DNA from: Pontibacter korlensis
GTDB lineage: Bacteria; Bacteroidota; Bacteroidia; Cytophagales; Hymenobacteraceae
DNA: 64,000 nt
Reading direction: 5' to 3'
Assembly (NCBI RefSeq): GCF_000973725.1
Contig: NZ_CP009621.1
Coordinates: 248,001-312,000 of the forward strand
Position numbers and translations under genes: made by a program. Numbering within the stretch: position 1 is the first letter of the stretch; each line of letters begins with the position of its first letter. Positions 1 through 64,000 of the stretch are shown in pieces. The notes under the pieces were generated by a model, which saw only the letters and a program-made list of their open reading frames with translations, was not told where the DNA came from and searched no databases.

Positions 1-1226
1 TCTGCGTTCCAGTTTTCTGCTTTGATGCGTTTATGCAACACATCCCGCACCATTTCCTTCACCTGTTCGTCTGAAAGCGCTTCATTACGGTTATAGAGGT
101 ACAGCTCGCAAATAACAGGATTTAAGTTAGACAGTGTGCCGCGGGTAAAGCGGGCACTAGCTTCTATGGTTTCGATGTCCTTCATCTTTTTAAGCTCGTT
201 GCGCATGACTTCTGTTACCTGGGTGTTAAGGCTTGCCTTTTGCAGTGCTGGCTGGCGCGAAAACTGCCAGTAAAGCATGCCTGCAATAATAAGCCCTGAA
301 ACCAGCATGGAGAGCCTGAATACAGACTCTTTCCCGTCAGCAAAACGTGCACCTTTGATGGTTACTTTGCCCAGGTATCGGAAAACCAACGCTGCCGTAA
401 ACTGGATGACTACCAGCTGAAAGAGTAGCAGGAATGCTCCACTGCGTATCAGCTGCCAGTTGCCAAAGTTCAGTGCCATACCAATCAGCCCGGTAGGAGG
501 CGCAAGCGAGGCTGCCACCAGCATACCCACAGCCGCGCCGGAAACCAAACTATCCCGCTCCGATTGAATCAAGTTGATACCTCCTGCTACACCAGCTGCC
601 AACGGTAACAAGATAGTCACCTGCGAAATGTGGCTCACGTTCACCATCATAGGGGTAGCGTGCTGCTGGCCTATCAGAAATGAAAGTATAAACGTGACTA
701 AGATGGCGGCGCCTATGGCCATAAAATAGCGCAACAAGCTTTGTTTAAGCAGCCCGCCTTTTCCTGAGGCTGCTCCCAGGGCAGCGTTCATGGCTGGCCC
801 GGCGAACGGTGAAACCAGCATGGCGGCCACCAGCAAATAACTAGTGTTCGTATAAAAGCCCACCCACACCAGCATGCCGCCTGCTACAGCGTATGTCAGC
901 AGCCCAACTTTTGAGCCCACACTCTGCAAGCCTCCTAAAAAAATCTCTAAAGGACTGCGGTAGGTTACGTCCGTTACCTGGTCCGGCGCATCACCCTGGG
1001 GTGGGTACATTGTAATAACTCCCCGGGGGACCAGCGTAATCTCTGCCTCTTCGAACTTACGCAGGTCGGCTATAAACTCGCTTACCTTCTTATTGTTGAG
1101 ATAAACTGTTACCACTTCCCCTTTCTCCACCTGATCCACCACCAGGTTTTTGCCATCGTGCTTCTCGGCTATTTCCCTTACCTCTCGTCCTTCTCCTTCT
1201 TTTACCTTTACAGTTAGTTTACGCAT
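1..1226 (-). CDS. DUF389 family integral membrane protein (partial, C-terminus off the left edge)
   Basis: Reading leftwards from the ATG at 1224-1226 gives an open frame of 408 codons with no stop before the window edge, so the gene is truncated by the window and not broken. The first ~90 residues are soluble and charged. A block of hydrophobic segments follows (about residues 95-310) with the glycine/proline-rich patches PFAGPAMNAALG and SLAPPTGLIGMAL, typical of the DUF389 (TIGR00341) hydrophobic domain. A soluble tail of ~90 residues comes last. The biochemical role of DUF389 proteins is not established; transport is a guess from topology. The upstream neighbour on the same strand ends at 1342 with a terminator between, so this gene is probably transcribed on its own. 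Confidence 0.85.
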   Translation of the reverse strand, partial: MRKLTVKVKEGEGREVREIAEKHDGKNLVVDQVEKGEVVTVYLNNKKVSEFIADLRKFEEAEITLVPRGVITMYPPQGDAPDQVTDVTYRSPLEIFLGGLQSVGSKVGLLTYAVAGGMLVWVGFYTNTSYLLVAAMLVSPFAGPAMNAALGAASGKGGLLKQSLLRYFMAIGAAILVTFILSFLIGQQHATPMMVNVSHISQVTILLPLAAGVAGGINLIQSERDSLVSGAAVGMLVAASLAPPTGLIGMALNFGNWQLIRSGAFLLLFQLVVIQFTAALVFRYLGKVTIKGARFADGKESVFRLSMLVSGLIIAGMLYWQFSRQPALQKASLNTQVTEVMRNELKKMKDIETIEASARFTRGTLSNLNPVICELYLYNRNEALSDEQVKEMVRDVLHKRIKAENWNA

Positions 1227-1287
1227 GTTCCTTTTATTTACCTCTTTTAGTACGGAGGCAGGAGGCACAGGTGTTCCAGTAAAACAG

Positions 1288-1322
1288 AAAGGCCCCTGCA
1301 ACAAGAGTTACAGGAGCCTTTC
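1288..1322 (-). terminator. Intrinsic terminator after the histidine phosphatase gene
   Basis: The stem AAAGGCnCCTG pairs with CAGGnGCCTTT around a ~13-base loop. On the minus strand it is followed by TCTGTTTT. It lies 20 bases past the stop of the minus-strand gene at 1342-1923. Confidence 0.75.
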
Positions 1323-1970: not shown

Positions 1971-4859
1971 CTATGCCTGAGCCAACTGTACGCCGGCCTG
2001 TGCCACATTCTCGGCATCCTGCATGCGTCCTTTCTGTTGCAGCAGGCGCACCAGGCGCTGCCGTATTTCCAGTTGGTAAGGGTACAGCAAAAGGGAATTT
2101 TCATACACACGAACAGCGCTGTTAATTTTTCCTTTCGCTTCATACATGCGGCCTCGGGCGGATTGTATCTGTGCCTCCTGCACAACAGTTTCCGGTTTTG
2201 GGAGCTGCTTTATAATGGCCTTAGCTTTATCCTTGTGCCCCAGTGTTGCCAGTACAGACACCAGCAAATGCCTCTCCTGCATCGGCAGGCTAAGCTCATT
2301 ATCCAGCAGGGGCTGCGCCACCTGCTGAGCGGCATTTTTATCCTCCAGTTGCAGCTGGTAGGCCGCCATACGCACCATAAAGTCAGCACGTGGCGAGCCA
2401 GCAGCCGTTAAAATGCGCTGCGCCTCCTCCAGTGTTTCAAAAGCTTCTTTATACTTACCCTGGGTAGCCAGCACATCGGCATACTGCCTGCGCAATTCAT
2501 AATTTTGCGGTTTCAGTGTCACCAACCTTTTCAGCTCCTGTACCGCCTCCGGGTTTAGACTTGTAGTACCTTTTAACCAGCTGGCATAAGCCATAGCCTC
2601 ATCCCGACGATCACGCAGGTATGTTGAAACAGTTGGAGCATGCGCTACATAAGCTTCGGCCACAGCAATAGCCTCGGGCACCATGCCATAGTCCACAAAA
2701 AACTCCCGAAACCTTTCATTCGACTCTGCTCGCATTAACAGGTCATCTTCCAGGTCAGCAGCCTTTTTATAAAGCGCTATCTGGCTCATGAGTGCATCGT
2801 GGGCATTCAGCTTGCCACGGCGCTTCATGATTTCCAGCAGCTCTGCCTCTGCCAGGTATATGGGTGCATAGCTTGCGTCTATACGCTTAGCCTGCTCCAG
2901 CCAAGCCTGCGCCTCCTTATACTTTTTCTGATGCTGGGCTACACCGGCATAAGCCAACAGGGCAGGCTGGTAGTTTTTATTCCACACCAGGGCACTATCT
3001 AAGTATACTATTGCTTGCTGCAAGTCGTCCCGTCGCTGAGCCTTTTGTGCCAGGTTTACGTATACCTGCGCCCAATTACTGGCCATTGCCTGCTTATCGC
3101 CGGATAAATAAGCTCGCTGCCGTGCCACCAACCCGTCCAGAAATGTATACAGTTCCGGATCTTTGGCTTTGAGGTCTGCCGTGGTGTTGATGGACTTATG
3201 GTTAAGCGGATGCACCTTTACCGGCTCAAAGTAGGCTGGGTAGGTCTGTGCCAGGTATTCGTGCTCATTATTGGCAGAGTAATAATCCAACGTGCGGCCC
3301 TGCTCCATAGCCTGGTTGTAAAGCCTACGTACTTCGCGTTTCTCAGCATCCGTAAAAACACGCTGATGAAACAGGTGTACATACTCATGCAGTACCACGT
3401 TGCGCTCCAGGTAAGAACCGCGCACCACATACTCAATGGCCGCAGCCCCACTGCCTACACCCCGGATGTCCATCCACTGGCGGTTATCAAAAGTTGTAGC
3501 TTGCCGGAAATATGGGGAGCCCATAGCAATAGCCAGGTCTATATGCAGTGGAGGAATGACAAACTTCTCTCCTTGTTTCGATAAAAAGGGGAAATACACG
3601 ATGCTCTCATACAGCTGCGACCACACCATCTGCTGTACTTCGTCGCCAGGGTAATAAGCAACATCCGGAAATACCCTGGCGAAGTTTTCAGGATCTGCAA
3701 TTACTGTCTGTAGTACTACCTGCTGCAGCGAATCGTAGTTGTGCAGGTAAGTGAGCTGCTTTTGCTTTATCACAGCGGCCAGTGCATTATGCGCCGGTCC
3801 GTAGTGTTTCTTTTTCTGGAGGATACCTTGAAATACAGCCTGGGCTGAATCGAGGCGTGCCTGCCGGTTCATATCAAAGGCCATATAGAAAGCAGAACCG
3901 CGCAACATGGCAGGCAGTACAGAGTTCTTATACTTTTGCTGCACATGTGCAGCCTCTGCCAGCGCCTCTGCTACCTTGTTTTCAGAAAGTAATCTATCGG
4001 CAGCCTTTAGCTCCTGACGCACCTGCTCGTCATCTGCTTGGGCATAATCGGCATAGGTCAGGTTGGTATGGCCGTTGCCCCAGTGCCAGTGGGTCACGTA
4101 ATGCAGTGGGTTCAGCTCCAAAGCCAGTTCCCATTGTGCCGCCATGTTATGAAGCTGCGTCGCATCCACACGGCGCCAGATGGCATAGCCGTAGTTAAAG
4201 CGGGCATCGGCGTTAAATGGGTTCAGGCTGAGGCTGTTGATAAGCGGCTGCTCAGCCAGCTCCGGCTTTTGGTTCCAGAAGTGTACATCAGACTCCAGTA
4301 GCCAGGCATCAGCATTGTTGCGATTCCAACGCTGTACTTTCCTGGCCCACTCCAAGGCCTCACCATATTTCTTTTGAAGCATCAGCACACGCCCTACAAG
4401 CAAAGCGGCGTCCTCGTCTTGTGCGTTACGCTTTAGCAACTGGTTAGCTGTAGCCAGTGCTTTCTCCAGCTCCCAAGCCTGTACCTGCAGCTTACTTTGC
4501 AGCAGCCGTGCCTCACGCTCCTGAGGGTTCTCCTGCAGCACCTCTTTTACCAGTGCTTCGGCCTGGCTAAACCTGTTCTCCAGTATAGCTAACCGCGCCT
4601 GCGCCAGCTTTACCCCCGTGCTGGCAGAAGCAGACTGCAGCACATGCTTTGCTTCCTGCCAGGCACCTAAATCCAGCAGGCGTGTTGCTTTCTGCGCCGG
4701 GCTAATGCTTACTTCCATTGCCTGCTGGCGCTCCTGCTGTAGCTTTTGGCGAACCTCCGCTACTTCATTGGGGTGCTGGGCAAAAACAGGAATGGCCGTC
4801 AGGAAAACAGACGCGCAGAGCAGTACTTTAGAAATAGAAAGCATTGGAATGAGGTTCAC
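1971..4859 (-). CDS. Secreted TPR-repeat protein with HExxH metallopeptidase domain
   Basis: A 962-residue protein with an N-terminal signal peptide (cleavage likely after VFA near residue 28). Degenerate tetratricopeptide-like helical repeats occupy about residues 60-280 and again 600-960. Between them is a peptidase-like segment with HEYVH at residues 491-495, a zinc-binding HExxH signature. A downstream NEHEYLAQ could supply the third (Glu) ligand, as in gluzincins. This suggests a periplasmic or outer-membrane-associated metalloprotease flanked by protein-binding repeats. The arrangement is known among Bacteroidota but I cannot name a characterised family. No substrate is evident. Confidence 0.75.
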   Translation of the reverse strand: MNLIPMLSISKVLLCASVFLTAIPVFAQHPNEVAEVRQKLQQERQQAMEVSISPAQKATRLLDLGAWQEAKHVLQSASASTGVKLAQARLAILENRFSQAEALVKEVLQENPQEREARLLQSKLQVQAWELEKALATANQLLKRNAQDEDAALLVGRVLMLQKKYGEALEWARKVQRWNRNNADAWLLESDVHFWNQKPELAEQPLINSLSLNPFNADARFNYGYAIWRRVDATQLHNMAAQWELALELNPLHYVTHWHWGNGHTNLTYADYAQADDEQVRQELKAADRLLSENKVAEALAEAAHVQQKYKNSVLPAMLRGSAFYMAFDMNRQARLDSAQAVFQGILQKKKHYGPAHNALAAVIKQKQLTYLHNYDSLQQVVLQTVIADPENFARVFPDVAYYPGDEVQQMVWSQLYESIVYFPFLSKQGEKFVIPPLHIDLAIAMGSPYFRQATTFDNRQWMDIRGVGSGAAAIEYVVRGSYLERNVVLHEYVHLFHQRVFTDAEKREVRRLYNQAMEQGRTLDYYSANNEHEYLAQTYPAYFEPVKVHPLNHKSINTTADLKAKDPELYTFLDGLVARQRAYLSGDKQAMASNWAQVYVNLAQKAQRRDDLQQAIVYLDSALVWNKNYQPALLAYAGVAQHQKKYKEAQAWLEQAKRIDASYAPIYLAEAELLEIMKRRGKLNAHDALMSQIALYKKAADLEDDLLMRAESNERFREFFVDYGMVPEAIAVAEAYVAHAPTVSTYLRDRRDEAMAYASWLKGTTSLNPEAVQELKRLVTLKPQNYELRRQYADVLATQGKYKEAFETLEEAQRILTAAGSPRADFMVRMAAYQLQLEDKNAAQQVAQPLLDNELSLPMQERHLLVSVLATLGHKDKAKAIIKQLPKPETVVQEAQIQSARGRMYEAKGKINSAVRVYENSLLLYPYQLEIRQRLVRLLQQKGRMQDAENVAQAGVQLAQA

Positions 4860-4940
4860 AGATGACTATCCCATAAAAGTATAATATTCCTGCTTTTGAT
4901 AAAAGGAACAAGAGGTTATCTTTATTTGACATTCCCACCG

Positions 4941-5628: not shown

Positions 5629-6684
5629 ATGGGAGCCAAGTTTCGTATACTTTTAACGGGCAGTGCCGGCTTCATAGGCCATCACCTGATGCTGGCACTG
5701 CAGCGGCATGGGCATTATGTAGTGGGCCTGGATAACCTAAACAGCTATTACGACCCTAAGCTTAAACACGAGCGGTTAACACAACAGGGCTTCAAGCCTG
5801 AAGCTGTACAGCAACAAGTTCTTCTACAGCGTAACGTTAACGCAACTACATACTTTGTGCAGCTGGATCTGGCAGATGCCACCAACCTACAGCAGCTTTT
5901 TGCTGAGCAGGCTTTTGACATAGTAATCAATCTTGCCGCGCAGGCTGGTGTACGCCATAGTATAGATCACCCGGAGGAATATGTGAAAAGCAATTTAGTC
6001 GGCTTTGCTAACCTGCTGGAGTGTTGCCGGCGCCATCGCATCAAGCACCTGCTTTTTGCCTCTTCCAGCTCGGTATATGGTCTGAACGAGCAGTCACCCT
6101 TCAGTACCAGCCACCGCACCGACTCGCCAGTTTCGTTTTATGCCGCCACTAAAAAGGCTAATGAGGTAATGGCGCACAGTTATGCCCACCTTTACGGCAT
6201 TCCAACCACAGGCCTGCGCTTTTTTACAGTATACGGCCCTTGGGGGCGTCCCGACATGGCTTACTATAGCTTTACCAAGGCCATAGTGGAAGGCACGCCG
6301 ATCCGAATCTTTAACCACGGCGACATGTTACGCGCTTTCACCTACGTAGATGACGTAGTTGAAAGCATTTTACACTTACTGCAGGTGCAGCCTCAGCATG
6401 GTTCGGTTCCGTATAAACTCTACAATATTGGAAACAACAAACCCGAGCAACTGCTGGAGATGGTGGCAATTCTGGAGCGATTGCTACAGCTCAAGGCAAA
6501 ACTAGACCTGCAGCCCATGCAGCCCGGCGATGTACAGGCCACTTATGCCGATGTAGACGATCTGATATTGGCAACCGGCTTCAGGCCACGCACCTCCCTG
6601 GATGAGGGTCTCAGCAGGTTTATGGCCTGGTTCAGGGAATACCATCAGGTGGAGGCGGAACCCCAGCTGCTAACGAAGCGATAG
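5629..6684 (+). CDS. NAD-dependent epimerase/dehydratase, UDP-glucuronate 4-epimerase-like
   Basis: A 351-residue short-chain dehydrogenase/reductase of the extended type. The NAD-binding GSAGFIG is at residues 11-17, a serine-rich strand (SSSSVYG) is near 145-151, and the catalytic YxxxK is YAATK at 171-175. The segment LDNLNSYYDPKLKHERL after the first strand, and RFFTVYGPWGRPDMA later, match the UDP-glucuronate 4-epimerase subgroup (CapI/LspL/LpsL-like), which interconverts UDP-GlcA and UDP-GalA. It is first in a plus-strand run with a GT2, a LAB_N protein and a GT39. UDP-GalA would be a sensible donor for that pathway; this is inference. Confidence 0.85.
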   Translation: MGAKFRILLTGSAGFIGHHLMLALQRHGHYVVGLDNLNSYYDPKLKHERLTQQGFKPEAVQQQVLLQRNVNATTYFVQLDLADATNLQQLFAEQAFDIVINLAAQAGVRHSIDHPEEYVKSNLVGFANLLECCRRHRIKHLLFASSSSVYGLNEQSPFSTSHRTDSPVSFYAATKKANEVMAHSYAHLYGIPTTGLRFFTVYGPWGRPDMAYYSFTKAIVEGTPIRIFNHGDMLRAFTYVDDVVESILHLLQVQPQHGSVPYKLYNIGNNKPEQLLEMVAILERLLQLKAKLDLQPMQPGDVQATYADVDDLILATGFRPRTSLDEGLSRFMAWFREYHQVEAEPQLLTKR

Positions 6685-8149: not shown

Positions 8150-9784
8150 ATGTTGCAACCTGACAACCCGCGCACAGGCCGTTTTATGTATGGCCTGCTT
8201 TTAGTGCTGTTTCTGCTACTGCTGTATAACTTAGGGGGATGGGGCGTAATTGAGACCAGCGAAGCCCGTTATGCCGAAATCAGCCGCGAAATGTGGCTCA
8301 GCGGCGATTGGCTCCACCCACGCCTGCTGGGTATACAGCACTACCACAAGCCGCCAGTTACCTACATTGTTTCGGCGCTTGGGATGGGGCTCTTTGAGCC
8401 AAGTGCCTTCGGAGCCCGCTTTTTTCTGCAGCTCTCCCTCCTGCTGCAGATCTGGCTGGTGTACCTGGTCGGAAAACTGATCTTTAAGGACTCACGGCAG
8501 GCTTTACTGGCTGCTGTTGTGTACCTAAGCATACCGGCAGTGCTGCTCTCAGCCCGCAACCTAACAACAGACTCTTTCCTGACAACCTTTGAACTGGCTG
8601 CTGTCTGGGCCTGGCTGAGGTATAAAATCGATGCTAAAGCTGCCTGGCTATACTTTTTCTACCTGCTGCTGGCCTTGGCTTTTCTTACCAAAGGGCCGGT
8701 AGGGTTGATTTTTCCTGTTTTAGCAGCCATTGGGTTTGGCCACAACTATACTTCCAGGTACAGGCAGTTTTTAGGCTGGCACCACCTGCCAGCGCTGCTG
8801 CTCTTTCTGGTGCTGGGCAGTTCCTGGTATGTATACCTCATGCTGCAGGACCCAGCTTTTGTAGATTATTTTCTCTTTAAGCACACGGTACAGCGTTACG
8901 CAAACCCGGATACTTTTGGCCGCTCCAAACCATGGTGGTTCTACCTGGTGCTGGCTCCGGCACTTAGCCTGCCTTGGTCCGCTATACTTCTGGTAAAGTT
9001 TAAGAAATTAAAAGAACTACCGACACCGCTCAAGCGCCTGTTCATACTTTGGATACTTGTGCCGCTGGTATTCTTTTCCTTTTCTGGTTCTAAACTTATC
9101 CTATACATACTGCCGCTCTTTGCCGGGCAGGCACTGCTGACATCATGGTTACTCACAAACTTATCCACAGAGGCAATGTGGAAAGCCACGCGCGGCAGCA
9201 TGATTCACTTTGCTATACTTGCACTGGCGCTGTTGGTAGCCCCTCTACTACCCGTAGGTGTACAGTTGCCGTGGTGGGCGCTGGCCTTTCCTGTACTCAT
9301 ACTGGCAGGCTTGTTTATACTTTGGCGTAAGCCATGGCCACACCAACAGAAGCTCATGTACAGCGCTTTGCTGTTTACCCTGCTGCTTCTGCCCTACTCA
9401 ACACACCTGATGGGGAGCAATCCTGATTTTACCAACGGCAGCAGGCCCGTGGCAGAAGCTATCGAGGCGCATAGCCTGCAGAAGCGGCCTATCCTGGTAT
9501 ACAACCGACTACTTCCGTCTCTGGCTTTTGAGTTAAACAAGGAAATTATCTCCCTGAAGGATGATAGTAACAAACTAGAGCGCGAAATACAGTTTGAGCA
9601 GGACGAGCAATGGCGGGAGCAACTGCTGGAACTAGAGCGCAGCCAGGACATGCAACGGCTTAGACAGCTGTTACAGCAGGATGTGGTACTTGTGGTGAAG
9701 AATGAGCTGCCTGGAAAGCGGCAGTGGATGCTGCAACACTTTGATGAGCAGGTGCAGGTAGGAAAGTGGACAATTTACTATTAA
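8150..9784 (+). CDS. ArnT-like family 39 glycosyltransferase (lipid-linked sugar donor)
   Basis: A 544-residue integral membrane protein with about a dozen hydrophobic segments and a soluble C-terminal domain from ~440. The first periplasmic loop holds ETSEARYAEISREM and, about 20 residues on, HYHKPPVTY (residues 36-73). This is the signature of ArnT/RgtA-type GT39 enzymes, whose acidic loop residues bind the acceptor and the polyprenyl-phosphate donor. Such enzymes transfer aminoarabinose or galacturonic acid to lipid A or LPS core on the periplasmic face. It is last in the cassette, 5 bases after the LAB_N gene, and is followed by a bidirectional terminator. Confidence 0.85.
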   Translation: MLQPDNPRTGRFMYGLLLVLFLLLLYNLGGWGVIETSEARYAEISREMWLSGDWLHPRLLGIQHYHKPPVTYIVSALGMGLFEPSAFGARFFLQLSLLLQIWLVYLVGKLIFKDSRQALLAAVVYLSIPAVLLSARNLTTDSFLTTFELAAVWAWLRYKIDAKAAWLYFFYLLLALAFLTKGPVGLIFPVLAAIGFGHNYTSRYRQFLGWHHLPALLLFLVLGSSWYVYLMLQDPAFVDYFLFKHTVQRYANPDTFGRSKPWWFYLVLAPALSLPWSAILLVKFKKLKELPTPLKRLFILWILVPLVFFSFSGSKLILYILPLFAGQALLTSWLLTNLSTEAMWKATRGSMIHFAILALALLVAPLLPVGVQLPWWALAFPVLILAGLFILWRKPWPHQQKLMYSALLFTLLLLPYSTHLMGSNPDFTNGSRPVAEAIEAHSLQKRPILVYNRLLPSLAFELNKEIISLKDDSNKLEREIQFEQDEQWREQLLELERSQDMQRLRQLLQQDVVLVVKNELPGKRQWMLQHFDEQVQVGKWTIYY

Positions 9785-11970: not shown

Positions 11971-12005
11971 TACCTATTTTAGCGTCTGAACCCACTATTT
12001 ATACT

Positions 12006-55594: not shown

Positions 55595-56008
55595 ATAATG
55601 GCCTTAAGAGATGTTAGAATATAGATGTTATAGCAAGACGTATCTCCCTTGTACCCATGGAAAAGCACTTCAGGCTCAAAAGCCTGTCTGGTGCACCATG
55701 TACTGCATGTAGTGCTCAAGCAGGGGCTTTAAATCATACTTATTCTATACTTTCCTCTTCGCTATGAGACTATTAAACCCCTCTTATCTTAACTGATTAT
55801 TTACATTAATACACATATTATTTATAAATGTTTAATAAAAATATAAGTTTTTAAACATTTATTTTACCTCCATAACTTGGTTTGATCTTAAAAACAGATA
55901 TGCTTTGGCAACCACACATCAGCGAGGGCAGTTGTCCTCAGGAAATGGAGCTTCCCATATAAGCTTACTAGCCAACAGGGGTGAAGAAAAACCTTCACAC
56001 AGCCTGTT
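55595..56008. other. Gap between the two accessory units, with an inverted repeat
   Basis: About 410 AT-rich bases, no gene. It probably contains the terminator of the SGNH unit and the promoter of the susC unit. An inverted repeat ATAAATGTTTAA / TTAAACATTTAT with a 15-base spacer lies at 55824-55862. Such a 12-bp palindrome could be a regulator site for susC. Confidence 0.5.
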
Positions 56009-57109
56009 CTACAGGCCCTTGGTTGGGGTCAGCTCATACTTGCGCAGAATCTTCAGGAGCTGCGGCTTTAACTGCTGCAGCATCCGATCAAAGCCCAAGT
56101 CGTTTGGGTGACCACCATCAATTGTGCCTTCATGATCATCGCCGAGTTGCTTGTCGTAGGAGAGTAAGTATAAGTCCTTCACCCCACTGCGTAGCAGCTT
56201 AGAAACCTCCAGTTCTATCTGCTCGTTTTGCGCTTTCACCCAGTTTCCCACTTCCTCATCGAAAGCTCCGTGTTCCCGGACAGTCCTGGGTATAACGATG
56301 ATGGGCGCCAGAGGGTGATGTTGCCTGATGGTGTTTACAAGGTAGGCTGTTCGCTCGCGGATTTCCTCAGGCGAAGAGTTCGGCACACAGTCCAGCACAA
56401 AGGCATCTGCTTTGACGGTAACTATCATATCAGCCACAGCCTTTTCCATTTTGGCGCTTCCACTTAACCCTAGGTTCAGAAAGTTAATACCGGTGTCACG
56501 GCTAAGGCGAGCAGGGTATGCCATACCTGGCCTGCTGGCTGAGGCTCCTTGCAGTATGCTGGAGCCATACATCAGGATTCGCTTTTCGAATGGGTCTTTC
56601 ATAGCCTGTAGAGAGCTTCCCTCCTCTACTCCAATTTCCAGGCTGACAGTTTCATCATACAAAGGAAGGTACAACAAGCATTCTTTCTCGCCTTCCTCCA
56701 TGTTCTGTACCAAGGTGTACGCTGTGCAGTCGCCCTTAGGCCTCCCAACACCGGCAAATTGCCAGCGGCCATCATTTTTGATATAGAGGTCCAGCCCCTC
56801 GTGGGCAATGGCAGTCATGTTGGGCAAAGTTTTGCGGCTGCTGGTGCACCATTTAGCTGCAATGACAGTACTGTTAGTTTTAAAGGCAATGGCTAAGCCT
56901 GCTGAGTTAGTTAAGCGTCTTTTTACCGCCGGAGGCATTAACGGGTGATCCGTAGTATCAACCCTATGGTAAACCTGTTGAGTAGGTAATATCTTTCCAA
57001 CCAAAGTCAGATCAGAGGCCGGTGTATAAACAATTGACTGGCCATAGGAAAAGGTTATAGTAAGGGCACAAACTACAGCCAGTGCCCACTTCATGATATC
57101 ATACTTCAT
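56009..57109 (-). CDS. SGNH/GDSL hydrolase, secreted
   Basis: A 366-residue protein with a signal peptide (MKWALAVVCALTITFSYGQS; the ATG six residues upstream is also possible). An N-terminal beta-sandwich of the SGNH_N kind (about 35-170, GLDLYIKNDGRWQF) is followed by the SGNH domain. Block I is YGSSILQGASA (Ser nucleophile), block V is DGGHPNDLGF (catalytic Asp-x-x-His). These enzymes remove acetyl or acyl esters from glycans or lipids. It is the last gene of the unit containing NAGPA and the DUF218-hemopexin gene. Confidence 0.85.
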   Translation of the reverse strand: MKYDIMKWALAVVCALTITFSYGQSIVYTPASDLTLVGKILPTQQVYHRVDTTDHPLMPPAVKRRLTNSAGLAIAFKTNSTVIAAKWCTSSRKTLPNMTAIAHEGLDLYIKNDGRWQFAGVGRPKGDCTAYTLVQNMEEGEKECLLYLPLYDETVSLEIGVEEGSSLQAMKDPFEKRILMYGSSILQGASASRPGMAYPARLSRDTGINFLNLGLSGSAKMEKAVADMIVTVKADAFVLDCVPNSSPEEIRERTAYLVNTIRQHHPLAPIIVIPRTVREHGAFDEEVGNWVKAQNEQIELEVSKLLRSGVKDLYLLSYDKQLGDDHEGTIDGGHPNDLGFDRMLQQLKPQLLKILRKYELTPTKGL

Positions 57110-57232
57110 ACTGTAGGAGTATTATACTTTTCGATGATTAGGTGCTGGGCTATAAAAAGCAGCACATTGATATTTTAGATGGAAGAGTGAAAAATAAACT
57201 ACTCTTTGCTCCTGCTAAAGCGTCATTTCTTC

Positions 57233-58117
57233 CTAACGCTCATGAAAGGTAATGACAGTCGCCACGCCACGTTCACCTGCATGGTCAAATTGTTTATTGT
57301 CGCACGGGTAGTTCACTACGCCCCGGTTTCTGACCCAAGCCGTAGATGATCCTCCGCCATCCAGGTTCATGGCCTCCACACAGCCCAGCGCATGCATCAC
57401 TGTAGCCAGTTGCTCTGTTGTCATGCCGTGTGCTTCCGTAAACCTGCCATCTACTACCACGGCGATCAGGTGGTTATCTTTTGTGATACCCACTGCAGTC
57501 CGGGGATGCCGATTGGTATTGAAGACCTGCTGCTCCTGTTTCACAAGCTCATCACTAAAAACCAGCAGGGGTCCAGATGTCAGCAACGTATGGGCTTCGG
57601 TCAGAGAGCTCCATCCGGCTGAGGGTTTCTTCACAACAGAGATGCTCCCATCTGCACCTACGGCAAAGCCTGCGTTTTCCCGGTAGGGGGTAAAGCCGCT
57701 TCGGGTGGTATGGATGATTTGCCCCTCCTTCTTGAAAAAGACCGTGGAGCCACCTTTGGAGGTGTCAAAATATGACCCGTTAATGGCCGCAGTGGCACGA
57801 AGACGCGCAGCCCCCTCACTTGTCTTCAGAAAGCCAGAGGTGACATGTGGAATGTCTATCGCTACCCCTTCATCGTTCAGGTCAATATCCAGGACAGTGA
57901 TGCTTTGGTTGGAGTTGAAAAGGTCATTGAAATGCTTATACTTCCATACAAGGGACTCTGAAACATTTCGTGTCTCCCAGTTCGCCGTGGCCAGCTGCTC
58001 GGCCACGGTTTGGGGCACCTGTACGACAGGAGGTGTCGTGTCTGGCCTTACCTGATCTTCCGAACACCCGGCCAGCAGCATGGTCGGGAGCAGCAATAGG
58101 GCTAAAAGCTTTTTCAT
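57233..58117 (-). CDS. NAGPA-domain phosphodiester glycosidase lipoprotein
   Basis: A 294-residue lipoprotein from the ATG at 58115-58117 (lipobox LLAGC; the longer frame from 58159 would overlap the upstream gene and precede the signal). The NAGPA (DUF2233) domain covers most of the rest. INGSYFD, RTAVGI, VVDGR and LDGGGSSTAWV are the conserved blocks of N-acetylglucosamine-1-phosphodiester alpha-N-acetylglucosaminidase-like proteins. Members cleave sugar phosphodiesters, so the target here may be a phosphoglycan. It lies 28 bases after the DUF218-hemopexin gene. Confidence 0.88.
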   Translation of the reverse strand: MKKLLALLLLPTMLLAGCSEDQVRPDTTPPVVQVPQTVAEQLATANWETRNVSESLVWKYKHFNDLFNSNQSITVLDIDLNDEGVAIDIPHVTSGFLKTSEGAARLRATAAINGSYFDTSKGGSTVFFKKEGQIIHTTRSGFTPYRENAGFAVGADGSISVVKKPSAGWSSLTEAHTLLTSGPLLVFSDELVKQEQQVFNTNRHPRTAVGITKDNHLIAVVVDGRFTEAHGMTTEQLATVMHALGCVEAMNLDGGGSSTAWVRNRGVVNYPCDNKQFDHAGERGVATVITFHER

Positions 58118-58145: not shown

Positions 58146-59396
58146 TTACTTTTCCCCAAGTATGGCTTCCGGCCAGGCCACCTCTGTATTCTTTGGGTAA
58201 CCCGGCTCCAACTTCATACTTTCCTCCGGGGAGATGACAACGAATTCCTTTCCCCTGAACAAGTATACTTTATTCTCCCGGCTGTTATAGTCAGCTGCAT
58301 CCACGTCACCGCTGCCCCATGAAAATGGCCAGTCAGGCACTAACGTGCTGATCTTTTGGGGAGCTCCTGCAACCTTGTTCCTGCTGGCCGGTACTTGCAG
58401 GTATTCTTCTCCTTTAAACAGGTAAATCTCCTTGCTCCTCGGGTTAAAGAAGGCTGCATCCAGGTGGCCGTAGTGCCAAGGGGCGGGCAGGTTGTTCACC
58501 AGGTCTGTCAGGGGTTTGGGGTAGCCGGCATCAAGTGTTTTGGCCTCCGGGGAGAAGCGGGCATACGCTGTGCCTTTAAAAATATAGACCTTGTTATCGC
58601 TGTTGTTGTAGTAGGCTGCATCCAACTCGCCAGCCCAGGCGGCAGGAAGGGCGGGCAGGGCCAGGGCAGTTCTTTCAACACTTCCTTCACCTGGCTTTGC
58701 TGCACTTTCCACATACGCCAGACCGTTCATCAGGCGGTAAGTGGTTTGCCAGCGCTTCTTCTTGTTTTCAACCGTAAAGCTGGCACCTACCATAGGCCAA
58801 AGCGCCTTTGCAGAGAAAACCTCACTACTTACCTCTGGATCGAAGATGTTCGTGTAATTTACCTGATCAGTATTTTTAGGAAGTATACTGCCTTCTATGT
58901 GGTACACAGCCGTTACGCTGTCGTTGGCTGTGAAACGCGCTGCCACCGGAATAGCGTGCCAATGGTTAGAGACCACATAAAGCTTGTCACCGGGCCTGAT
59001 AACTTTTGTGCCGTCTGCCTTTCTGAGCATTCTGCTGTAGGTGTAGTTTTGAACCGTACTTTTGGATTTCTCCTCTTTGAAGATGATCTCGGCCGGCACT
59101 CCCTTTGCTACCAGTATTTCCTTCATTTCGGAGGCTTCGCATAGTTTGGATTGATGCGCAGCACAGCCGCCGGATACCACAATGTAGTCGAACGATGTGG
59201 GCGAGGCATAGAGTCTGTAACCAACCTCCACCCTTTCCACCAATGTGTTTTTATCTGCAGAGCCTAGAATAAGTATGCCGTTCCGCTGGCCAGTCGGCTC
59301 CTGTTGCGCCATGGCCCCGAGGCTGCAAACCTGAAAGGTTAAAAGTATAAGTACCCTGGCCACTTGTAGCTTCGGAAAGATCTTGTTTTTCATCAT
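58146..59396 (-). CDS. DUF218 (YdcF/ElyC-like) domain fused to hemopexin repeats, secreted
   Basis: A 416-residue protein with a signal peptide (cleavage after MAQ, ~31). Residues ~38-170 match DUF218: ILILGSAD at the first strand, VVSGGCAA, the SEMKEILVAKGVP helix, and SNHWHAIPVAARF. From ~256 three hemopexin-like blades follow, each starting with (D)DAA or DVDAA and containing VYIFKG, IYLFKG or VYLFRG (at about 256-308, 310-360, 363-410). A degenerate fourth may lie at 203-254. DUF218 enzymes are linked to envelope glycan and lipid-carrier metabolism. Hemopexin repeats on them are unusual and suggest substrate or surface binding. Part of a minus-strand unit. Confidence 0.8.
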   Translation of the reverse strand: MMKNKIFPKLQVARVLILLTFQVCSLGAMAQQEPTGQRNGILILGSADKNTLVERVEVGYRLYASPTSFDYIVVSGGCAAHQSKLCEASEMKEILVAKGVPAEIIFKEEKSKSTVQNYTYSRMLRKADGTKVIRPGDKLYVVSNHWHAIPVAARFTANDSVTAVYHIEGSILPKNTDQVNYTNIFDPEVSSEVFSAKALWPMVGASFTVENKKKRWQTTYRLMNGLAYVESAAKPGEGSVERTALALPALPAAWAGELDAAYYNNSDNKVYIFKGTAYARFSPEAKTLDAGYPKPLTDLVNNLPAPWHYGHLDAAFFNPRSKEIYLFKGEEYLQVPASRNKVAGAPQKISTLVPDWPFSWGSGDVDAADYNSRENKVYLFRGKEFVVISPEESMKLEPGYPKNTEVAWPEAILGEK

Positions 59397-59501
59397 CTGC
59401 TTTTGTTTTACACAAAAAGGTGCCGGGTTTCAGCAACCCTAGCACCCATACTTTATAGATGTACTTCAGGATGCTCCTGATAGCACACAAAGTATAAAGG
59501 A

Positions 59502-59546: not shown

Positions 59547-61232
59547 TTAGTTCCCGTCTGCCAGCGCGCCCATGGCGTGTAAGCCGGAGCGGCTGTTATG
59601 CTGCAGATCCTTTGTTATCAGGCTGCTTTCTACGGCAGGGCTAAGGCTGCTGCCCAGTTTCACCAGGTCGTCTGCGCTCATGCCGTGCTCCAAGGCAGGG
59701 TTATTCTCCCCAACAGGTACATAGGCCTCTGTAAACATGGTGCCCGCATCAAAGCTGGCTCCCTCAATGGCCTCACCATTCGCCTCATAGGCTACACTTC
59801 CCAGCACCGAGGACCCTACAACCGGGGCAGGTGCATCGGATTCATATACATCTACATCCGGCCCGTCGCCTTTCTGCTCATTACCTGAGACAATCGAGTT
59901 GTAAATGCTTACCTTGTTAACGCCTGCTCTTCTATAGATACCGCCGCCAGGTCCGTTAATCGAGTTGCCAGTAATGGTAGTGTTCACTATTACAGCCTCA
60001 TTATTATTATACATCATAACACCACCGCCTCCGTTAGCAGAAGTACTGGTATTGCCATAGATAAGGCAGTTCACCAGAAGGCCTTTGGAGTTCTGGCGGA
60101 TGTAATAAGCGGCTCCGTAGGAGCGTCCATTGTTATCAGCAATGATAGAGTTGTACATATTAACCGTGGCGTCCGGATAGCCATGAACACCTGCGGCTGT
60201 TCCGCCCGAGTTACCTTTCACCTCTGTATCATACATATGGGCAACAGACTCACTGATCCACACACCGCCGGCATTGCCAGCAGAACTGTTGTTGTTTATC
60301 TTGCTTCTGTGGATGGTGACAACTGATCCCCCGAAGGCGTACAAGCCGGCCACGTTCTTATCAGACATGTTGTCCACAATCTCGGTGTCCAGTATGTCTA
60401 CCACGGCGTTGCCGATAGTGATACCTCCGCCATAGTCTCTTCTAAAGGAGGTGCCGTTGATCTTGGCAGAGGAAGTTGCCGGACCAGCCTTACCCTCTGT
60501 GATTTTCAGGCCTTCCAGCACCACCTTCTGCCCCTCTGTTTTAGGGGCAGACACCGTGACCACGTGGTAAGACACGCCGCCGCCGGAAAGTATGGTCCGG
60601 TACTGATGAGGGCTTGCCTCGCTGCCTTCCGTGGCATCGGCCGGGTAACCTCCTTTTAAACGAACATACTTGCTGATCTCAAAAGTCACGTCACCGGCAT
60701 CCCCCGGATCGCCGCCCGTAACCGTTGCTGTCGGCGTATAAACCCCTTCAGCTATATGGATGGTGTTCCCGCTAACTGCTATGCCCAGTGCATTCTGCAG
60801 GTTAGTGGCATCGTCCCAGGAGTAACCTTCCCCGGTACCGTCTACCCTCACGTAGATGTCATCCCGGTTGCCGGCCTCCTGCGTTACCAGAATCTCCTGC
60901 TGCGTAACACCGTTTGCCGAGACTGTAATTTTTCCGGTTCTCTCGTCGTCGTCGTTTTCCTCTACCGTAAAAGAGAGGTTCACCTTGCCTTTCTCCCCGG
61001 AAGTCTGCTCCAAGCTGATCCAATCCACATCCGTTTCCACCTGCCATGCCTGGTTGGTTAGAAAAACGATAGTGTGCTTGCTGCTGGTATTTGCCACGGA
61101 GAAAGCCTGGTTCTCCAGAAACAGCCTGGGCTCAAAGTCCTCGTCGTCCTTCTTACAGCCTGCCAAGGTGACAAGTATAAAGGCAGCCAGGAAGAACCGT
61201 GTGATCAAACTGAATTGTAGTATTCTTTTCAT
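59547..61232 (-). CDS. BACON-domain, right-handed beta-helix lipoprotein
   Basis: A 561-residue lipoprotein (lipobox TLAGC, Cys26). A BACON domain occupies about 38-130 (VETDVDWISLEQTSGEKG, ISVSANGVTQQEI pattern), as in Bacteroidota carbohydrate-binding proteins. Residues ~135-520 form a parallel beta-helix with short repeating turns (ILDTEIVDN, VTIHRSKINNNSSAGN, AVIVNTTITGNS), like pectate-lyase and related polysaccharide-binding or cleaving proteins. No catalytic site is obvious. It likely binds the polymer at the surface. Confidence 0.8.
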   Translation of the reverse strand: MKRILQFSLITRFFLAAFILVTLAGCKKDDEDFEPRLFLENQAFSVANTSSKHTIVFLTNQAWQVETDVDWISLEQTSGEKGKVNLSFTVEENDDDERTGKITVSANGVTQQEILVTQEAGNRDDIYVRVDGTGEGYSWDDATNLQNALGIAVSGNTIHIAEGVYTPTATVTGGDPGDAGDVTFEISKYVRLKGGYPADATEGSEASPHQYRTILSGGGVSYHVVTVSAPKTEGQKVVLEGLKITEGKAGPATSSAKINGTSFRRDYGGGITIGNAVVDILDTEIVDNMSDKNVAGLYAFGGSVVTIHRSKINNNSSAGNAGGVWISESVAHMYDTEVKGNSGGTAAGVHGYPDATVNMYNSIIADNNGRSYGAAYYIRQNSKGLLVNCLIYGNTSTSANGGGGVMMYNNNEAVIVNTTITGNSINGPGGGIYRRAGVNKVSIYNSIVSGNEQKGDGPDVDVYESDAPAPVVGSSVLGSVAYEANGEAIEGASFDAGTMFTEAYVPVGENNPALEHGMSADDLVKLGSSLSPAVESSLITKDLQHNSRSGLHAMGALADGN

Positions 61233-61293: not shown

Positions 61294-62256
61294 TTATTTG
61301 CTGTTGATATAATTGGTATAGAGGGATTGATAGCACGTTGCAAAGTCCTTCTCATCCTCGTAGGCGCTCTCGTACATGAACGGGCCGGTATACTCCACCG
61401 CCTCCAAGGCGGCCAGAATAGCGTTCCAGTCGTTCTTTCCTTCGCCTGAGCAAGGGAAGAAGTGGTTCTCCGCCGCCCCAGTACCATCGGCAATATGCAC
61501 CGTCTTCAAACGGCTGCCCATGGCCTTTATCAGGTTCTCCGGGTTTTTGATGTGATTCATGTCAATGGCAGAGTAGATAGACTTTGGCAGCCTGTTAAAG
61601 ATTTCCACCGTTTCCTCTACTGTTCGCATAAGCGGGCGCTCCCGGCCGTTGCTGGCCTGCAGCTCAGGTCCGAGCATATTCTCAAGCACCATCGTGGCAT
61701 TTATACTTTGCACCGCCTTGTCTAGCTCCGTGGCCGACTTGATCAGCTGGCTTTTGCGCCTGTCCCGCTCGTTGAGGCCCAGGTAATAGCTCGGGTGGAA
61801 GAGTATAACCTCCGGCTCCAGAATCCTCAGGAAAGAGATCAGCTTCGTATGCTTTGCCACCACATCCTGCCTGTCTGCCTCATTAAGGATGGACAGGTCA
61901 ATGTGCTGACCGTAGGGCATGTGCACCGACCATACTTTGATACCGGCCGCATCCGCTGCCTTCTTGGCATCCGTCAGCCTTTTGATGATTTCCTCATCGG
62001 ACAGCTTGAAGTTCCGGTTCCCATCCAGAAAAAGGCTCATACCGGAAGCTTCCACAAAACTCACCCCCACAGATTTGGCATAAGCAAGCTTCTCCGGCGT
62101 AAACTTACTGATGGCCAATCCATAGCCAATTTGGAGGGGCGCTACCGGGGTTTCTTTGGCAGGCTCCTCCGGCGCAGGCTCATCTTTCCCAGTATCACAG
62201 GCACTGAAGTTGAGCAAACAGGCAAATAGTATCGCTAACATTGCTATTCTTGTCAT
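61294..62256 (-). CDS. Sugar phosphate isomerase/epimerase-like TIM-barrel lipoprotein
   Basis: A 320-residue lipoprotein (lipobox NFSAC, Cys20) with a proline/glutamate linker to ~42. The AP-endonuclease-2/xylose-isomerase-like TIM barrel follows. VLENM, IDMNHIKNPENLI, TVHIADG and the late YESAYE match the metal-binding positions of this family. Enzymes of the fold isomerise sugars, and a lipoprotein form working on the outside of the cell is notable. It starts 12 bases after the upstream SusD-like gene. Confidence 0.8.
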   Translation of the reverse strand: MTRIAMLAILFACLLNFSACDTGKDEPAPEEPAKETPVAPLQIGYGLAISKFTPEKLAYAKSVGVSFVEASGMSLFLDGNRNFKLSDEEIIKRLTDAKKAADAAGIKVWSVHMPYGQHIDLSILNEADRQDVVAKHTKLISFLRILEPEVILFHPSYYLGLNERDRRKSQLIKSATELDKAVQSINATMVLENMLGPELQASNGRERPLMRTVEETVEIFNRLPKSIYSAIDMNHIKNPENLIKAMGSRLKTVHIADGTGAAENHFFPCSGEGKNDWNAILAALEAVEYTGPFMYESAYEDEKDFATCYQSLYTNYINSK

Positions 62257-62268
62257 GAGTGTGAAAAA

Positions 62269-64000
62269 TTACTCCCAGTTTGGGTTTTGTACCAGATTCT
62301 CGTTCAGTCTCAGGTCTTCGATTGGAAGCGGGTAATAATAGTCCCGGTTTTCGTCGAAATAGCCGCCTAGTGAGAAAGGGTTCAGGTAGCCGGAGGTACC
62401 GTTGGTTAATGGCCTTTGTTGTATGTTGATAATAGTGGAAGCCTCTTTTGGCGCGCCGGCGGCGTTGCCATCGTGCAGGAACACATCAGTTTTGCCGTCG
62501 TTGTTGAAGTCGTGTGCGCCCAGGCCTGAGAAGTAAATGCCCACCATCGGCTGCTCTATTTTTTTGCCCTCTTTCCAGCGCATCAAATCATCCCAGCGGT
62601 GTCCTTCGTTAAAGAGCTCAATGCGGCGCTCCCGGCGAATCTCCAGGAGCACGCCTTTGTTAGCTCCTCCATCTATATTTGGATACATAGCCGCCAGGTA
62701 CGGATCGGGGTTGGCATTGGCCTGCGCCAGGTTGAGGTGCGGCATACCTACTCTGTCTCTGAGCTTGTTGATGCTGATATCCAGGTCCTGCTGCGTGAGG
62801 GTGCCCAGCTCGGCTTTGGCCTCCGCATAAATCAATAAGGCCTCTGCGTAACGGAAGATGATAATGTCCATGTAAGAGGCACTCCACTGGTCTCGGGACG
62901 GAAGTGCTTTGATCACGCGGTAACCTGTGGTTGTACCGTTCAGGTTCACCGGCTCAGGGGTGCTCTCTCCGTATACCATAAAATTCGGTCCGGCTGTAGT
63001 CTGGGTCAGGCGAGGGTCGCGGTCTTGCATCTCCTCATAAAACTCCATGGTTTCATAGCCCGTCTTATCTGTAAACCGGCTACCGTCCTTCATCAGGTAG
63101 CTATTGATAACATCCTTTGTGATACCCCAGGCACCCATGGTAGGGGCCGTCATCAGGTAACCCAGGTTGTGCTGGCCTAAATCCCGCTCGTAGTCCCTGG
63201 CCAGGATGGTTTCCGTAGGGTCCTGCACGTTACGGGCAAACAGCTCACGGTATGCCTCATTAGGGCCGCCTGCGGTAAACAAGCGGTAAGCACCTGAGTT
63301 TATCAGTTCCCCGGACGCAGCGGCCGCTTCCTGCAGCAGCTGCTCATAATCTCCAAGACCATGATACTTTCTGAACGTGCCCTCGTACAGCGCGATTCTG
63401 GCTTTCAGAAGCAAAGCTGTATACTTGGTAATGCGGTTTAGCTCTACCTCCGCCGGAATGTTGGCTATGGCATAGTCAATATCGGCCATCACCGAATCGA
63501 TCACCAGCTTGCGCGGATCTCGCGCCTTGTACAGATCAGGGTCCCCGGCCTCCAGCACTTTGCTGTACCACGGCACATCCCCAAAGCGCTGCACCTTCTC
63601 AAAGTAGAAGTAGGCCCGGAAGAAGCGGGCGATGCCGCCATACTTGCGCTTGGCTGCCTCATCAGGCACGCGGTGGTAGTTCTCCAGGAAAAAGTTAATA
63701 TCTCTGAGCCTGCTCCAGGACCAGCCCCCGCTCCCACGGGTGGTAGGCACCATACGGTTGCCCCTCACTCTATCGGACGCGTTCAAGGGCACGATGTTAT
63801 CTGAGGAGGCATCATCGCTGTAGACCCCGGTGGTGGGTAGCATACTGTAAAAGTCATTTGTGGCCACCTCCAGGTCCGTAGCTGTTTTGAAGAAGAACTC
63901 TGCGTCCACTTTGTCCTTTGGGGGCCTGTCCAGGAAATCTTTTTCGCAGCCGGTAAAGAGCATGGTAAGGAAGGCGAAAACGGAAGTAATGTATATTCTT
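62269..64000 (-). CDS. SusD/RagB-family outer membrane lipoprotein (N-terminus off the right edge)
   Basis: The SusD family C-terminal part is clear: YMDIIIFRYAEALLIYAEAKAEL, RRERRIELFNEGHRWDDLMRWK and the terminal QNPNWE. The frame stays open to the window end. Its leading residues there (RIYITSVFAFLTM before LFTGC) form a signal helix with a lipobox, so the real start is just beyond 64000 and the ATG at 63963 is internal. At least 577 residues. Its susC partner is presumably outside the window. It would serve ligand capture for the glycan handled by the genes downstream. Confidence 0.88.
   Translation of the reverse strand, partial: RIYITSVFAFLTMLFTGCEKDFLDRPPKDKVDAEFFFKTATDLEVATNDFYSMLPTTGVYSDDASSDNIVPLNASDRVRGNRMVPTTRGSGGWSWSRLRDINFFLENYHRVPDEAAKRKYGGIARFFRAYFYFEKVQRFGDVPWYSKVLEAGDPDLYKARDPRKLVIDSVMADIDYAIANIPAEVELNRITKYTALLLKARIALYEGTFRKYHGLGDYEQLLQEAAAASGELINSGAYRLFTAGGPNEAYRELFARNVQDPTETILARDYERDLGQHNLGYLMTAPTMGAWGITKDVINSYLMKDGSRFTDKTGYETMEFYEEMQDRDPRLTQTTAGPNFMVYGESTPEPVNLNGTTTGYRVIKALPSRDQWSASYMDIIIFRYAEALLIYAEAKAELGTLTQQDLDISINKLRDRVGMPHLNLAQANANPDPYLAAMYPNIDGGANKGVLLEIRRERRIELFNEGHRWDDLMRWKEGKKIEQPMVGIYFSGLGAHDFNNDGKTDVFLHDGNAAGAPKEASTIINIQQRPLTNGTSGYLNPFSLGGYFDENRDYYYPLPIEDLRLNENLVQNPNWE

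What the first reader, a model, noticed from the sequence alone, without database searches (positions are those of the whole stretch)
1..64000. The heptamer AAGTATA / TATACTT is strongly over-represented throughout the window
Reading the whole window by eye I count at least about 70 occurrences on the two strands. A random heptamer at about 50% GC is expected about 8 times (64000 x 2 / 16384). Examples: 684-690, 3001-3007, 9214-9220, 9316-9322, 25019-25025, 25031-25037, 27669-27675, 38150-38156, 43731-43737, 46998-47004, 61173-61179, plus two palindromic 10-mers AAGTATACTT at 16202-16211 and 58261-58270. They occur inside genes of every function, in both strands, and in gaps. Inside genes the reverse form often spells Ile-Leu as ATA-CTT, codons that otherwise seem less used here. 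This resembles highly iterated motifs (HIP1, Chi, KOPS, uptake sequences) more than promoters. Codon-pair bias is the main alternative.
Basis: partly seen in the sequence, partly recalled or inferred. Interest (0 to 1): 0.7.

Follow-up and report, generated by a model that had tools for sequence, protein, structure and literature searches.

The report
Genome-wide uptake-like DNA word with dialects
A short DNA word repeated thousands of times in this Pontibacter genome exists in three dialects across its genus, much like the self-recognition tags that some other bacteria use when they take up DNA; that it serves uptake here is likely but not shown.

Summary
AAGTATA occurs 79 times in the window (about 7 expected) and 5,476 times in the genome, against 623 for the reversed word. 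It is not codon-pair bias: all six codon phases are enriched, DNA between genes is denser, and synonymous shuffling leaves a 4-fold excess. There is no replication-strand bias. The genus is Pontibacter by its relatives. Of its 50 species genomes, 39 carry one of three words on a shared frame: AAGTATA in 20, AGGTATA in 12, AACTATA in 4, A plus C in 3; 11 have none. Nothing outside the genus comes close. Between two close species, sites are lost at about half the matched control rate. This resembles DNA-uptake-sequence dialects most. The own strain's comEC (DNA channel) is a pseudogene and its word is the weakest of its dialect, but two other genomes with broken comEC show no weakening, and the own strain still keeps sites above control in simple pairs. 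Three methyltransferase families do not track the word. No pilin signature was found. Uptake is inferred, not shown.

The parts
684..690 (+). AAGTATA copy
2450..2456 (-). AAGTATA copy
2918..2924 (-). AAGTATA copy
3001..3007 (+). AAGTATA copy
3929..3935 (-). AAGTATA copy
4877..4883 (+). AAGTATA copy
5646..5652 (-). AAGTATA copy
8649..8655 (-). AAGTATA copy
8747..8753 (-). AAGTATA copy
8983..8989 (-). AAGTATA copy
9214..9220 (-). AAGTATA copy
9316..9322 (-). AAGTATA copy
11044..11050 (+). AAGTATA copy
12000..12006 (-). AAGTATA copy
12600..12606 (+). AAGTATA copy
13116..13122 (-). AAGTATA copy
13601..13607 (-). AAGTATA copy
14034..14040 (+). AAGTATA copy
14626..14632 (+). AAGTATA copy
14696..14702 (-). 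AAGTATA copy
15501..15507 (+). AAGTATA copy
16202..16211 (.). palindrome AAGTATACTT (two overlapping copies)
17021..17027 (-). AAGTATA copy
17692..17698 (-). AAGTATA copy
18281..18287 (-). AAGTATA copy
18452..18458 (+). AAGTATA copy
19277..19283 (-). AAGTATA copy
20538..20544 (-). AAGTATA copy
20863..20869 (-). AAGTATA copy
24346..24352 (+). AAGTATA copy
24504..24510 (-). AAGTATA copy
25019..25025 (+). AAGTATA copy
25031..25037 (+). AAGTATA copy
25875..25881 (+). AAGTATA copy
26193..26199 (+). AAGTATA copy
26948..26954 (-). AAGTATA copy
27390..27396 (-). AAGTATA copy
27669..27675 (+). AAGTATA copy
28362..28368 (-). AAGTATA copy
28441..28447 (+). AAGTATA copy
30060..30066 (+). AAGTATA copy
31117..31123 (-). 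AAGTATA copy
33208..33214 (-). AAGTATA copy
34551..34557 (-). AAGTATA copy
34624..34630 (+). AAGTATA copy
35938..35944 (+). AAGTATA copy
36469..36475 (-). AAGTATA copy
36928..36934 (-). AAGTATA copy
37277..37283 (-). AAGTATA copy
38150..38156 (+). AAGTATA copy
39342..39348 (+). AAGTATA copy
40999..41005 (+). AAGTATA copy
41227..41233 (-). AAGTATA copy
41566..41572 (+). AAGTATA copy
42307..42313 (-). AAGTATA copy
43731..43737 (+). AAGTATA copy
45128..45134 (+). AAGTATA copy
46656..46662 (+). AAGTATA copy
46965..46971 (+). AAGTATA copy
46998..47004 (+). AAGTATA copy
49056..49062 (-). AAGTATA copy
50627..50633 (+). AAGTATA copy
51616..51622 (+). AAGTATA copy
51635..51641 (+). AAGTATA copy
53971..53977 (+). 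AAGTATA copy
54195..54201 (-). AAGTATA copy
55746..55752 (-). AAGTATA copy
56166..56172 (+). AAGTATA copy
57123..57129 (-). AAGTATA copy
57937..57943 (-). AAGTATA copy
58261..58270 (.). palindrome AAGTATACTT (two overlapping copies)
58881..58887 (+). AAGTATA copy
59343..59349 (+). AAGTATA copy
59490..59496 (+). AAGTATA copy
61173..61179 (+). AAGTATA copy
61702..61708 (-). AAGTATA copy
63420..63426 (-). AAGTATA copy

Best explanation
AAGTATA (best form AAGTATAA) is the local dialect of a genus-wide family of DNA-uptake-sequence-like self tags with the frame A-R-S-TATA-R. A DNA-recognising component of natural transformation prefers DNA that carries the species' own word. Copies that arise by chance are carried back into the population more often than their mutated versions, so the word builds up wherever DNA can tolerate it, on both strands. 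When the recogniser's specificity shifts by one or two bases, a new dialect accumulates and the old one decays. In the window's own strain uptake may have been lost, because comEC is a pseudogene, and the inherited copies may be fading. SHOWN: the enrichment, its independence of codons, the three dialects, mixed genomes, slowed loss between two active species, the broken comEC of the own strain and its weaker word. INFERRED: that the sorting process is DNA uptake, that an unknown non-pilin receptor reads the word, and that comEC loss caused the weakening.
For: Genome-wide table: 39 of 50 genus genomes carry a word at 7x or more over its reversed control (A 20, G 12, C 4, A+C 3); forward and reverse totals are nearly equal, e.g. 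A 93,706 and 94,800. In 12, 10 and 3 gyrB loci the best octamers are AAGTATAA 37x, AGGTATAG 56x and AACTATAG 42x, with a strict TATA core. On a seven-gene tree of 30 species the 7 G species form one clade, and the four C or A+C species another (100/100 each); six changes explain all states and two explain word or none. DUS dialects in Neisseriaceae also follow phylogeny, and one genome there holds two dialects in nearly equal number (PMC3630211: outline with abstract, and one results section). Density is higher outside genes: 1.46 against 0.90 per kb in the own genome, 4.20 against 1.54 in 320 kb of four active relatives. Coding copies there number 386 against 49 in synonymous shuffles. P. mucosus against a close relative (G123, taken as P. 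chinhatensis): 19 losses in 340 site-lineages against 0.113 expected (p 0.0002), and 8 gains against 3.8 (p 0.04); with the reference swapped, on the same data, 17 of 332 against 0.109, and 10 against 3.9; 60 of 104 permuted heptamers gave 113 gains against 107.5. Own comEC: two stops and a frame change. Own word 8.8x, the lowest of 23 A-bearing genomes. Sites shared by two relatives: own keeps 0.33-0.48 against controls of 0.32-0.38; active relatives keep 0.60-0.77 against 0.37-0.54. Riemerella columbina, also Bacteroidota, prefers its own DNA in transformation competition (PMC7965970, one section read).
Against: No uptake assay is at hand; none for Pontibacter appeared in the listings, which showed 10 of 374 and 12 of 176 papers. 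The pilin signature PF07963 is absent from all 34 genus genomes searched, so the known receptor class is missing. Two other genomes with broken comEC keep full words: HSC-14F20 (G046, several lesions, G word 27x) and G119 (one frame change, C word 21x). All 11 motif-less genomes have comEC with a full-length frame. In simple pairs the own strain still keeps sites above control (0.25-0.33 against 0.14-0.16; active pairs at similar distance 0.41-0.54 against 0.17-0.24), so its decay is partial at best. The ten same-site tests all point one way, but p runs from 0.002 to 0.45, the data overlap, and the own strain is more divergent than some partners. In the gain test a non-motif word did as well (TACCTGG 7 against 2.1), three of five such words did not exceed expectation, and permuted words were also lost slightly slower than controls (0.083 against 0.100). 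Between mucosus and chinhatensis the gyrB locus alone shows little extra conservation (0.64-0.69 against 0.60-0.62). Spacing is random or clustered. Slowed loss would also follow from another role or from biased repair.
Confidence: 0.47

Rival explanations
1. The word is the binding site of another chromosomal DNA-binding system, such as a recombination or repair signal working like Chi or a nucleoid or segregation protein, whose specificity drifts between clades.
For: The word is in genes and gaps on both strands and is lost more slowly than controls. A 9.7-kb stretch of P. mucosus without the word is low in GC and carries a serine recombinase, so DNA that looks acquired lacks the word.
Against: No leading-strand bias (671 leading, 609 lagging), no convergent pairing beyond overlapping palindromes and no helical phase that I could see, no even spacing. 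An essential chromosomal role is hard to square with 11 of 50 species lacking all three words.
Confidence: 0.23
2. A DNA methyltransferase recognises the word, and methylation-linked repair or selection raises its number, as proposed for HIP1 in cyanobacteria.
For: HIP words also reach 1-2 per kb and can be replaced by other words along with their methyltransferases (PMC4390886: outline with abstract, parts 1 and 2 of 3 of the discussion).
Against: PF01555 is missing from 13 of 39 motif-positive genomes and PF00145 from 20 of 39; both are missing from five, including P. flavimaris (G083) at 38x. PF07669, searched in 30 genomes, had matches in 29 but none in the own genome, and in P. burrus, P. 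ruber and P. arcticus one match each, in open frames of 811, 1176 and 555 residues; that reading is by frame length, not by orthology. The words are not palindromes. Other methyltransferase models (PF02384, PF02086 and more) were not searched.
Confidence: 0.11
3. A context-dependent mutation or mismatch-repair bias creates the word, with no function.
For: Gains are above and losses below expectation; enrichment over the reversed word is similar inside and outside genes in the own genome (9.0x and 8.3x from the densities).
Against: The words need seven or eight specified bases, in largely exclusive dialects, and reach 38x; known mutation biases act on two or three neighbours (recalled). Vsr-type repair (PF03852) is absent from six motif-positive genomes.
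Confidence: 0.16
4. Codon-pair or codon-usage bias.
For: The ATA-CTT phase is the commonest (229 of 942).
Against: All six phases are enriched, density is higher outside genes, and 942 copies were seen against 236 in 20 synonymous shuffles. The other dialects behave alike, save that one phase of AACTATA would spell a stop codon and is empty.
Confidence: 0.01

Closest known systems
DNA uptake sequence (DUS) dialects of Neisseriaceae (PMC3630211: abstract and one results section seen)
   Same: Thousands of copies; dialects differ by one or two bases around a fixed core; one dialect per species as a rule, following the species tree; a genome with two dialects.
   Different: 8-mer here, 10- to 12-mer there; phylum Bacteroidota; no pilin signature found; uptake preference not tested; 11 of 50 species genomes of the genus have none of the three words.
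Uptake signal sequences (USS) of Pasteurellaceae (PMC12616744 and PMC1626085, search listings only)
   Same: High-copy short word in related forms.
   Different: The receptor predicted there is a type IV minor pilin; no pilin signature was found here.
HIP1 and alternate HIPs of cyanobacteria (PMC4390886: abstract and two of three parts of the discussion seen)
   Same: About 1-2 copies per kb; replaced by other words in some lineages.
   Different: HIPs are GC-rich palindromes tied to methyltransferases; these words are AT-rich, not palindromic, and show no link to the three methyltransferase families tested.

Membership tests
DNA uptake sequence / USS | Very high copy number on both strands throughout the genome | tested here: met
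DNA uptake sequence / USS | Dialects differing by a few bases around a conserved core, one per species or clade | tested here: met
   three of 39 bearers hold two dialects
DNA uptake sequence / USS | Word raises DNA uptake or transformation | not testable with these tools
   needs an assay
DNA uptake sequence / USS | Type IV (minor) pilin receptor such as ComP | tested here: not met
   PF07963, one short model (27 positions), absent from 34 of 34 genus genomes; the one match among 36 genomes is Adhaeribacter soli. The other 16 genus genomes were not searched.
DNA uptake sequence / USS | Competence channel (ComEC) in bearers; its loss followed by decay of the word | tested here: inconclusive
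   PF03772 in 50 of 50; own comEC broken and word weaker, but G046 and G119 broken without weakening
HIP1-type iterated motif | Palindromic word | tested here: not met
   the best octamers AAGTATAA, AGGTATAG and AACTATAG are not their own reverse complements
HIP1-type iterated motif | Cognate methyltransferase present with the word | tested here: inconclusive
   PF01555, PF00145 (50 genomes) and PF07669 (30 genomes) do not track it; other families not searched
Chi / KOPS | Orientation bias with replication | tested here: not met
   671 leading, 609 lagging in 1.26 Mb, origin and terminus judged from GC skew

The most novel reading that the evidence does not exclude
Pontibacter has a self-DNA recognition system for natural transformation with species dialects, read by a receptor unlike the pilin receptors of Neisseriaceae and Pasteurellaceae. 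Dialect switching and loss, with fading after comEC loss and larger genomes in motif-less species, would make the birth and death of uptake specificity directly readable within one genus.
Probability: 0.43. Interest if true: 0.92.

Novelty: new variant of a known kind. Interest (0 to 1): 0.83.

Why it matters
Sequence-specific DNA uptake is known from two families of Proteobacteria (recalled) and is tied there to pilin proteins (PMC3868556 and PMC12616744, listings only). A 2021 word count in three Bacteroidota genomes found only A/T-rich frequent words (PMC7965970). A strong, switching, three-dialect word in a genus without a pilin signature would be an independent origin. It gives a natural experiment on how such specificity changes, what follows when it is lost, and which protein reads the word. 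It could also give a tag for transforming these bacteria.

Tried and rejected
Vsr-type repair (PF03852): present in 43 of 50 genus genomes; six of the seven without it carry a word, so it is not the cause. Hairpin or terminator pairs and helical phasing: none evident; 20 palindromes AAGTATACTT in the sample, about what I roughly expect from composition. ComEC as dialect determinant: the gyrB DNA tree scattered the C-dialect species and the ComEC tree grouped them, which looked like a dialect-linked transfer. A multi-gene protein tree groups the same species at 100/100, so the claim was withdrawn. On re-check, one of the eight 'genes' proved to be an antisense frame; without it the seven-gene tree says the same. 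One search also coded harenae as C, fetidus as C and unc903 as A from 22-kb loci; with the genome-wide classes the count of changes is again six. ComEC is 2.9x faster on the stem of the C clade, but two control genes are 2.2x and 2.0x faster too, so this is not used. Even spacing: rejected. In-place conversion of AAGTATA to AACTATA: not among the listed commonest states at the few aligned sites. A similar word in Chitinophaga, Hymenobacter, Adhaeribacter and others: not seen in single loci of about 22 kb, except ACCTAGG in two.

Limits: genes in the 1.26-Mb sample were called by a simple script of mine; the loss and gain test rests on about 82 kb of two genomes; the genome-size contrast is not corrected for kinship; the 7x threshold for a dialect is my choice; paper listings were capped.
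Full report
THE OBSERVATION. AAGTATA occurs 79 times in the 64-kb window; 100 dinucleotide shuffles average 7.0 and never exceed 12. The whole genome (5,462,537 bases, one contig, window at 248001-312000) has 5,476 copies against 623 for the word read backwards. In a 1.264-Mb sample it has the highest z of all heptamers under order-1 and order-2 models. Under order 5 it ranks second but only 1.22x, because its sub-words carry the same signal. Outside the heptamer there are weak preferences for A before it and for A at the next two positions.

NOT CODONS, NOT STRAND. In the sample 940 copies lie in called genes, 324 between genes and 16 across a border, giving 0.90 and 1.46 per kb. All six codon phases are enriched 2.3- to 8-fold; 20 rounds of synonymous shuffling give 236 against 942 observed, the largest z of the heptamers with at least 5 expected. 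Leading and lagging counts are 671 and 609. There is no convergent pairing beyond overlapping palindromes and no even spacing. The other dialects behave alike: coding copies 386 against 49 shuffled for A in 320 kb of four active relatives, 222 against 21 for G in ten gyrB loci, 92 against 12 for C in three, the one phase of AACTATA that spells a stop being empty.

A GENUS-WIDE SYSTEM WITH DIALECTS. In 200 genomes of the family (50 of the own genus), only the own genus shows strong excess, and there it is bimodal; other genera reach about 2.5x. Named relatives identify the genus as Pontibacter, one member being named Botryobacter. Comparing word counts of AAGTATA-rich and AAGTATA-poor species (14 gyrB loci each) showed that the poor group has a word of its own: AGGTATAG at 34x, 2.4x in the rich group. 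Species by species, three dialects appear, AAGTATAA, AGGTATAG and AACTATAG, and a few species with none. Genome-wide counts for the 50 genomes (table, threshold 7x over the reversed word) give 20 A, 12 G, 4 C, 3 A plus C, and 11 without; one of the 11 has a weak G word (G115, 5.7x) and one weak A, G and C (harenae, 2.2-4.0x). Counts reach 13,168 copies (G085, AACTATA). On a seven-gene protein tree of 30 species the G species form one clade (100/100), and burrus, populi (C), fetidus and unc903 (A plus C) another (100/100). Six changes explain all states and two explain word or none. In 390 genomes of the order, 19 of them of this genus, the highest ratio that I see outside the genus is 2.4.

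DYNAMICS. For P. mucosus and a close relative (G123, taken as P. chinhatensis; 92.5% identical over 85 kb), with outgroups, ancestral sites were lost at 0.056 per lineage (19 of 340) against 0.113 for neighbouring heptamers in the same codon phase (p 0.0002), and 8 gains were seen against 3.8 expected (p 0.04). With the reference swapped, on the same data: 17 of 332 against 0.109, and 10 against 3.9. Sixty of the 104 other arrangements of the same letters gave 113 gains against 107.5 and loss 0.083 against 0.100. Of five frequent unrelated words two had gains above expectation (TACCTGG 7 against 2.1, TTACCTG 6 against 3.1) and three did not. So slowed loss is well supported and raised gain only weakly. 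On the gyrB locus alone the two species keep the word little better than other heptamers.

THE OWN STRAIN. Its excess (8.8x) is the lowest of the 23 A-bearing genomes. Its comEC, found by PF03772, is broken by two stops and a frame change. On aligned DNA it carries 29-34 copies where relatives carry 45-76. It keeps sites shared by two relatives at about the control rate (0.33-0.48 against 0.32-0.38), while active relatives keep them above it (0.60-0.77 against 0.37-0.54). In simple pairs it still keeps sites above control (0.25-0.33 against 0.14-0.16), though less than active pairs (0.41-0.54 against 0.17-0.24). Same-site comparisons all point the same way, with p from 0.002 to 0.45 and overlapping data. 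This fits partial fading after loss of uptake. Against it, HSC-14F20 (G046) has a comEC with several lesions and G119 one frame change, and both have full complements. Loss there may be recent, but that was not shown.

MECHANISM. Dialects, mixed genomes, strand symmetry and turnover are what a DNA-uptake drive predicts and what DUS dialects show in Neisseriaceae (PMC3630211). The receptor named there in other papers is a type IV pilin (ComP, PMC3868556, listing only). The pilin signature PF07963 is absent from all 34 genus genomes searched, so a different reader would be needed. Methyltransferase-driven iteration, the HIP model (PMC4390886), is disfavoured: PF01555 is missing in 19 of 50 and PF00145 in 27 of 50 genomes, and both are missing in five motif-positive ones, one of them the own strain. 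PF07669 shows no shared enzyme by frame length among 30 genomes; that is my reading of lengths, not an orthology test. Other methyltransferase families were not searched.

GENOME SIZE. Motif-less genomes are larger (median 5.8 Mb, n = 11) than bearers (4.6 Mb, n = 39; Mann-Whitney p 3.5e-6, not corrected for kinship), and the own strain is the largest bearer. Among bearers, size and excess are unrelated (rho 0.11, p 0.51). This would fit the idea that transformation helps purge mobile DNA (recalled), but the motif-less species fall into few clades (two changes on the tree), so shared ancestry may explain it.

LITERATURE. Searches of the held library for Pontibacter with the word, for HIP words, for DUS or USS with Bacteroidetes, Bacteroidota, Cytophaga or Flavobacterium, and for natural transformation in this group (5 to 15 papers listed per search of up to 33,304 found) listed no report of this motif. 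One paper on Riemerella columbina shows own-DNA preference in the phylum and lists only A/T-rich frequent words in three genomes (PMC7965970: passages and one section).

VERDICT. A real, strong, genus-specific family of iterated words with dialects, working most likely like an uptake sequence; uptake itself remains to be tested.

Noticed in passing
own genome C1:2771217-2771876 and around (L177:790-2881): comEC of the window's strain is a pseudogene with two stops and a frame change.
   Followed up: yes
G046 (HSC-14F20) comEC locus L174; G119 comEC locus L190: Two further genus genomes have broken comEC (several lesions; one frame change) while their words remain abundant.
   Followed up: partly
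50 genus genomes: Motif-less genomes are larger than motif-bearing ones (median 5.8 against 4.6 Mb), not corrected for kinship.
   Followed up: partly
L104 (Solirubrum) and L113 (Hymenobacter crusticola) gyrB loci: ACCTAGG is enriched 14x and 9x in single 22-kb loci; possibly another iterated word in this family.
   Followed up: no
L216:2252-11925 (G107, P. mucosus): A 9.7-kb stretch without the word, GC 0.38 (the 80 kb around it 0.52), carrying a serine recombinase; probably a mobile island.
   Followed up: partly
own genome sample: CAGGTA/TACCTG is also enriched (2.9x, order 1), and GCAGGAGG is skewed 104:36 to the leading strand; not examined for a Chi-like role.
   Followed up: no
own genome stretches L048, L068, L013, L038, L049, L067: Six of 60 sampled 20-kb stretches hold only 3-5 copies. 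Of seven frames scanned in two of them, one in L049 is a transposase and two in L048 are ThiC and a BATS-domain radical SAM protein, so low density is not only in mobile DNA.
   Followed up: partly
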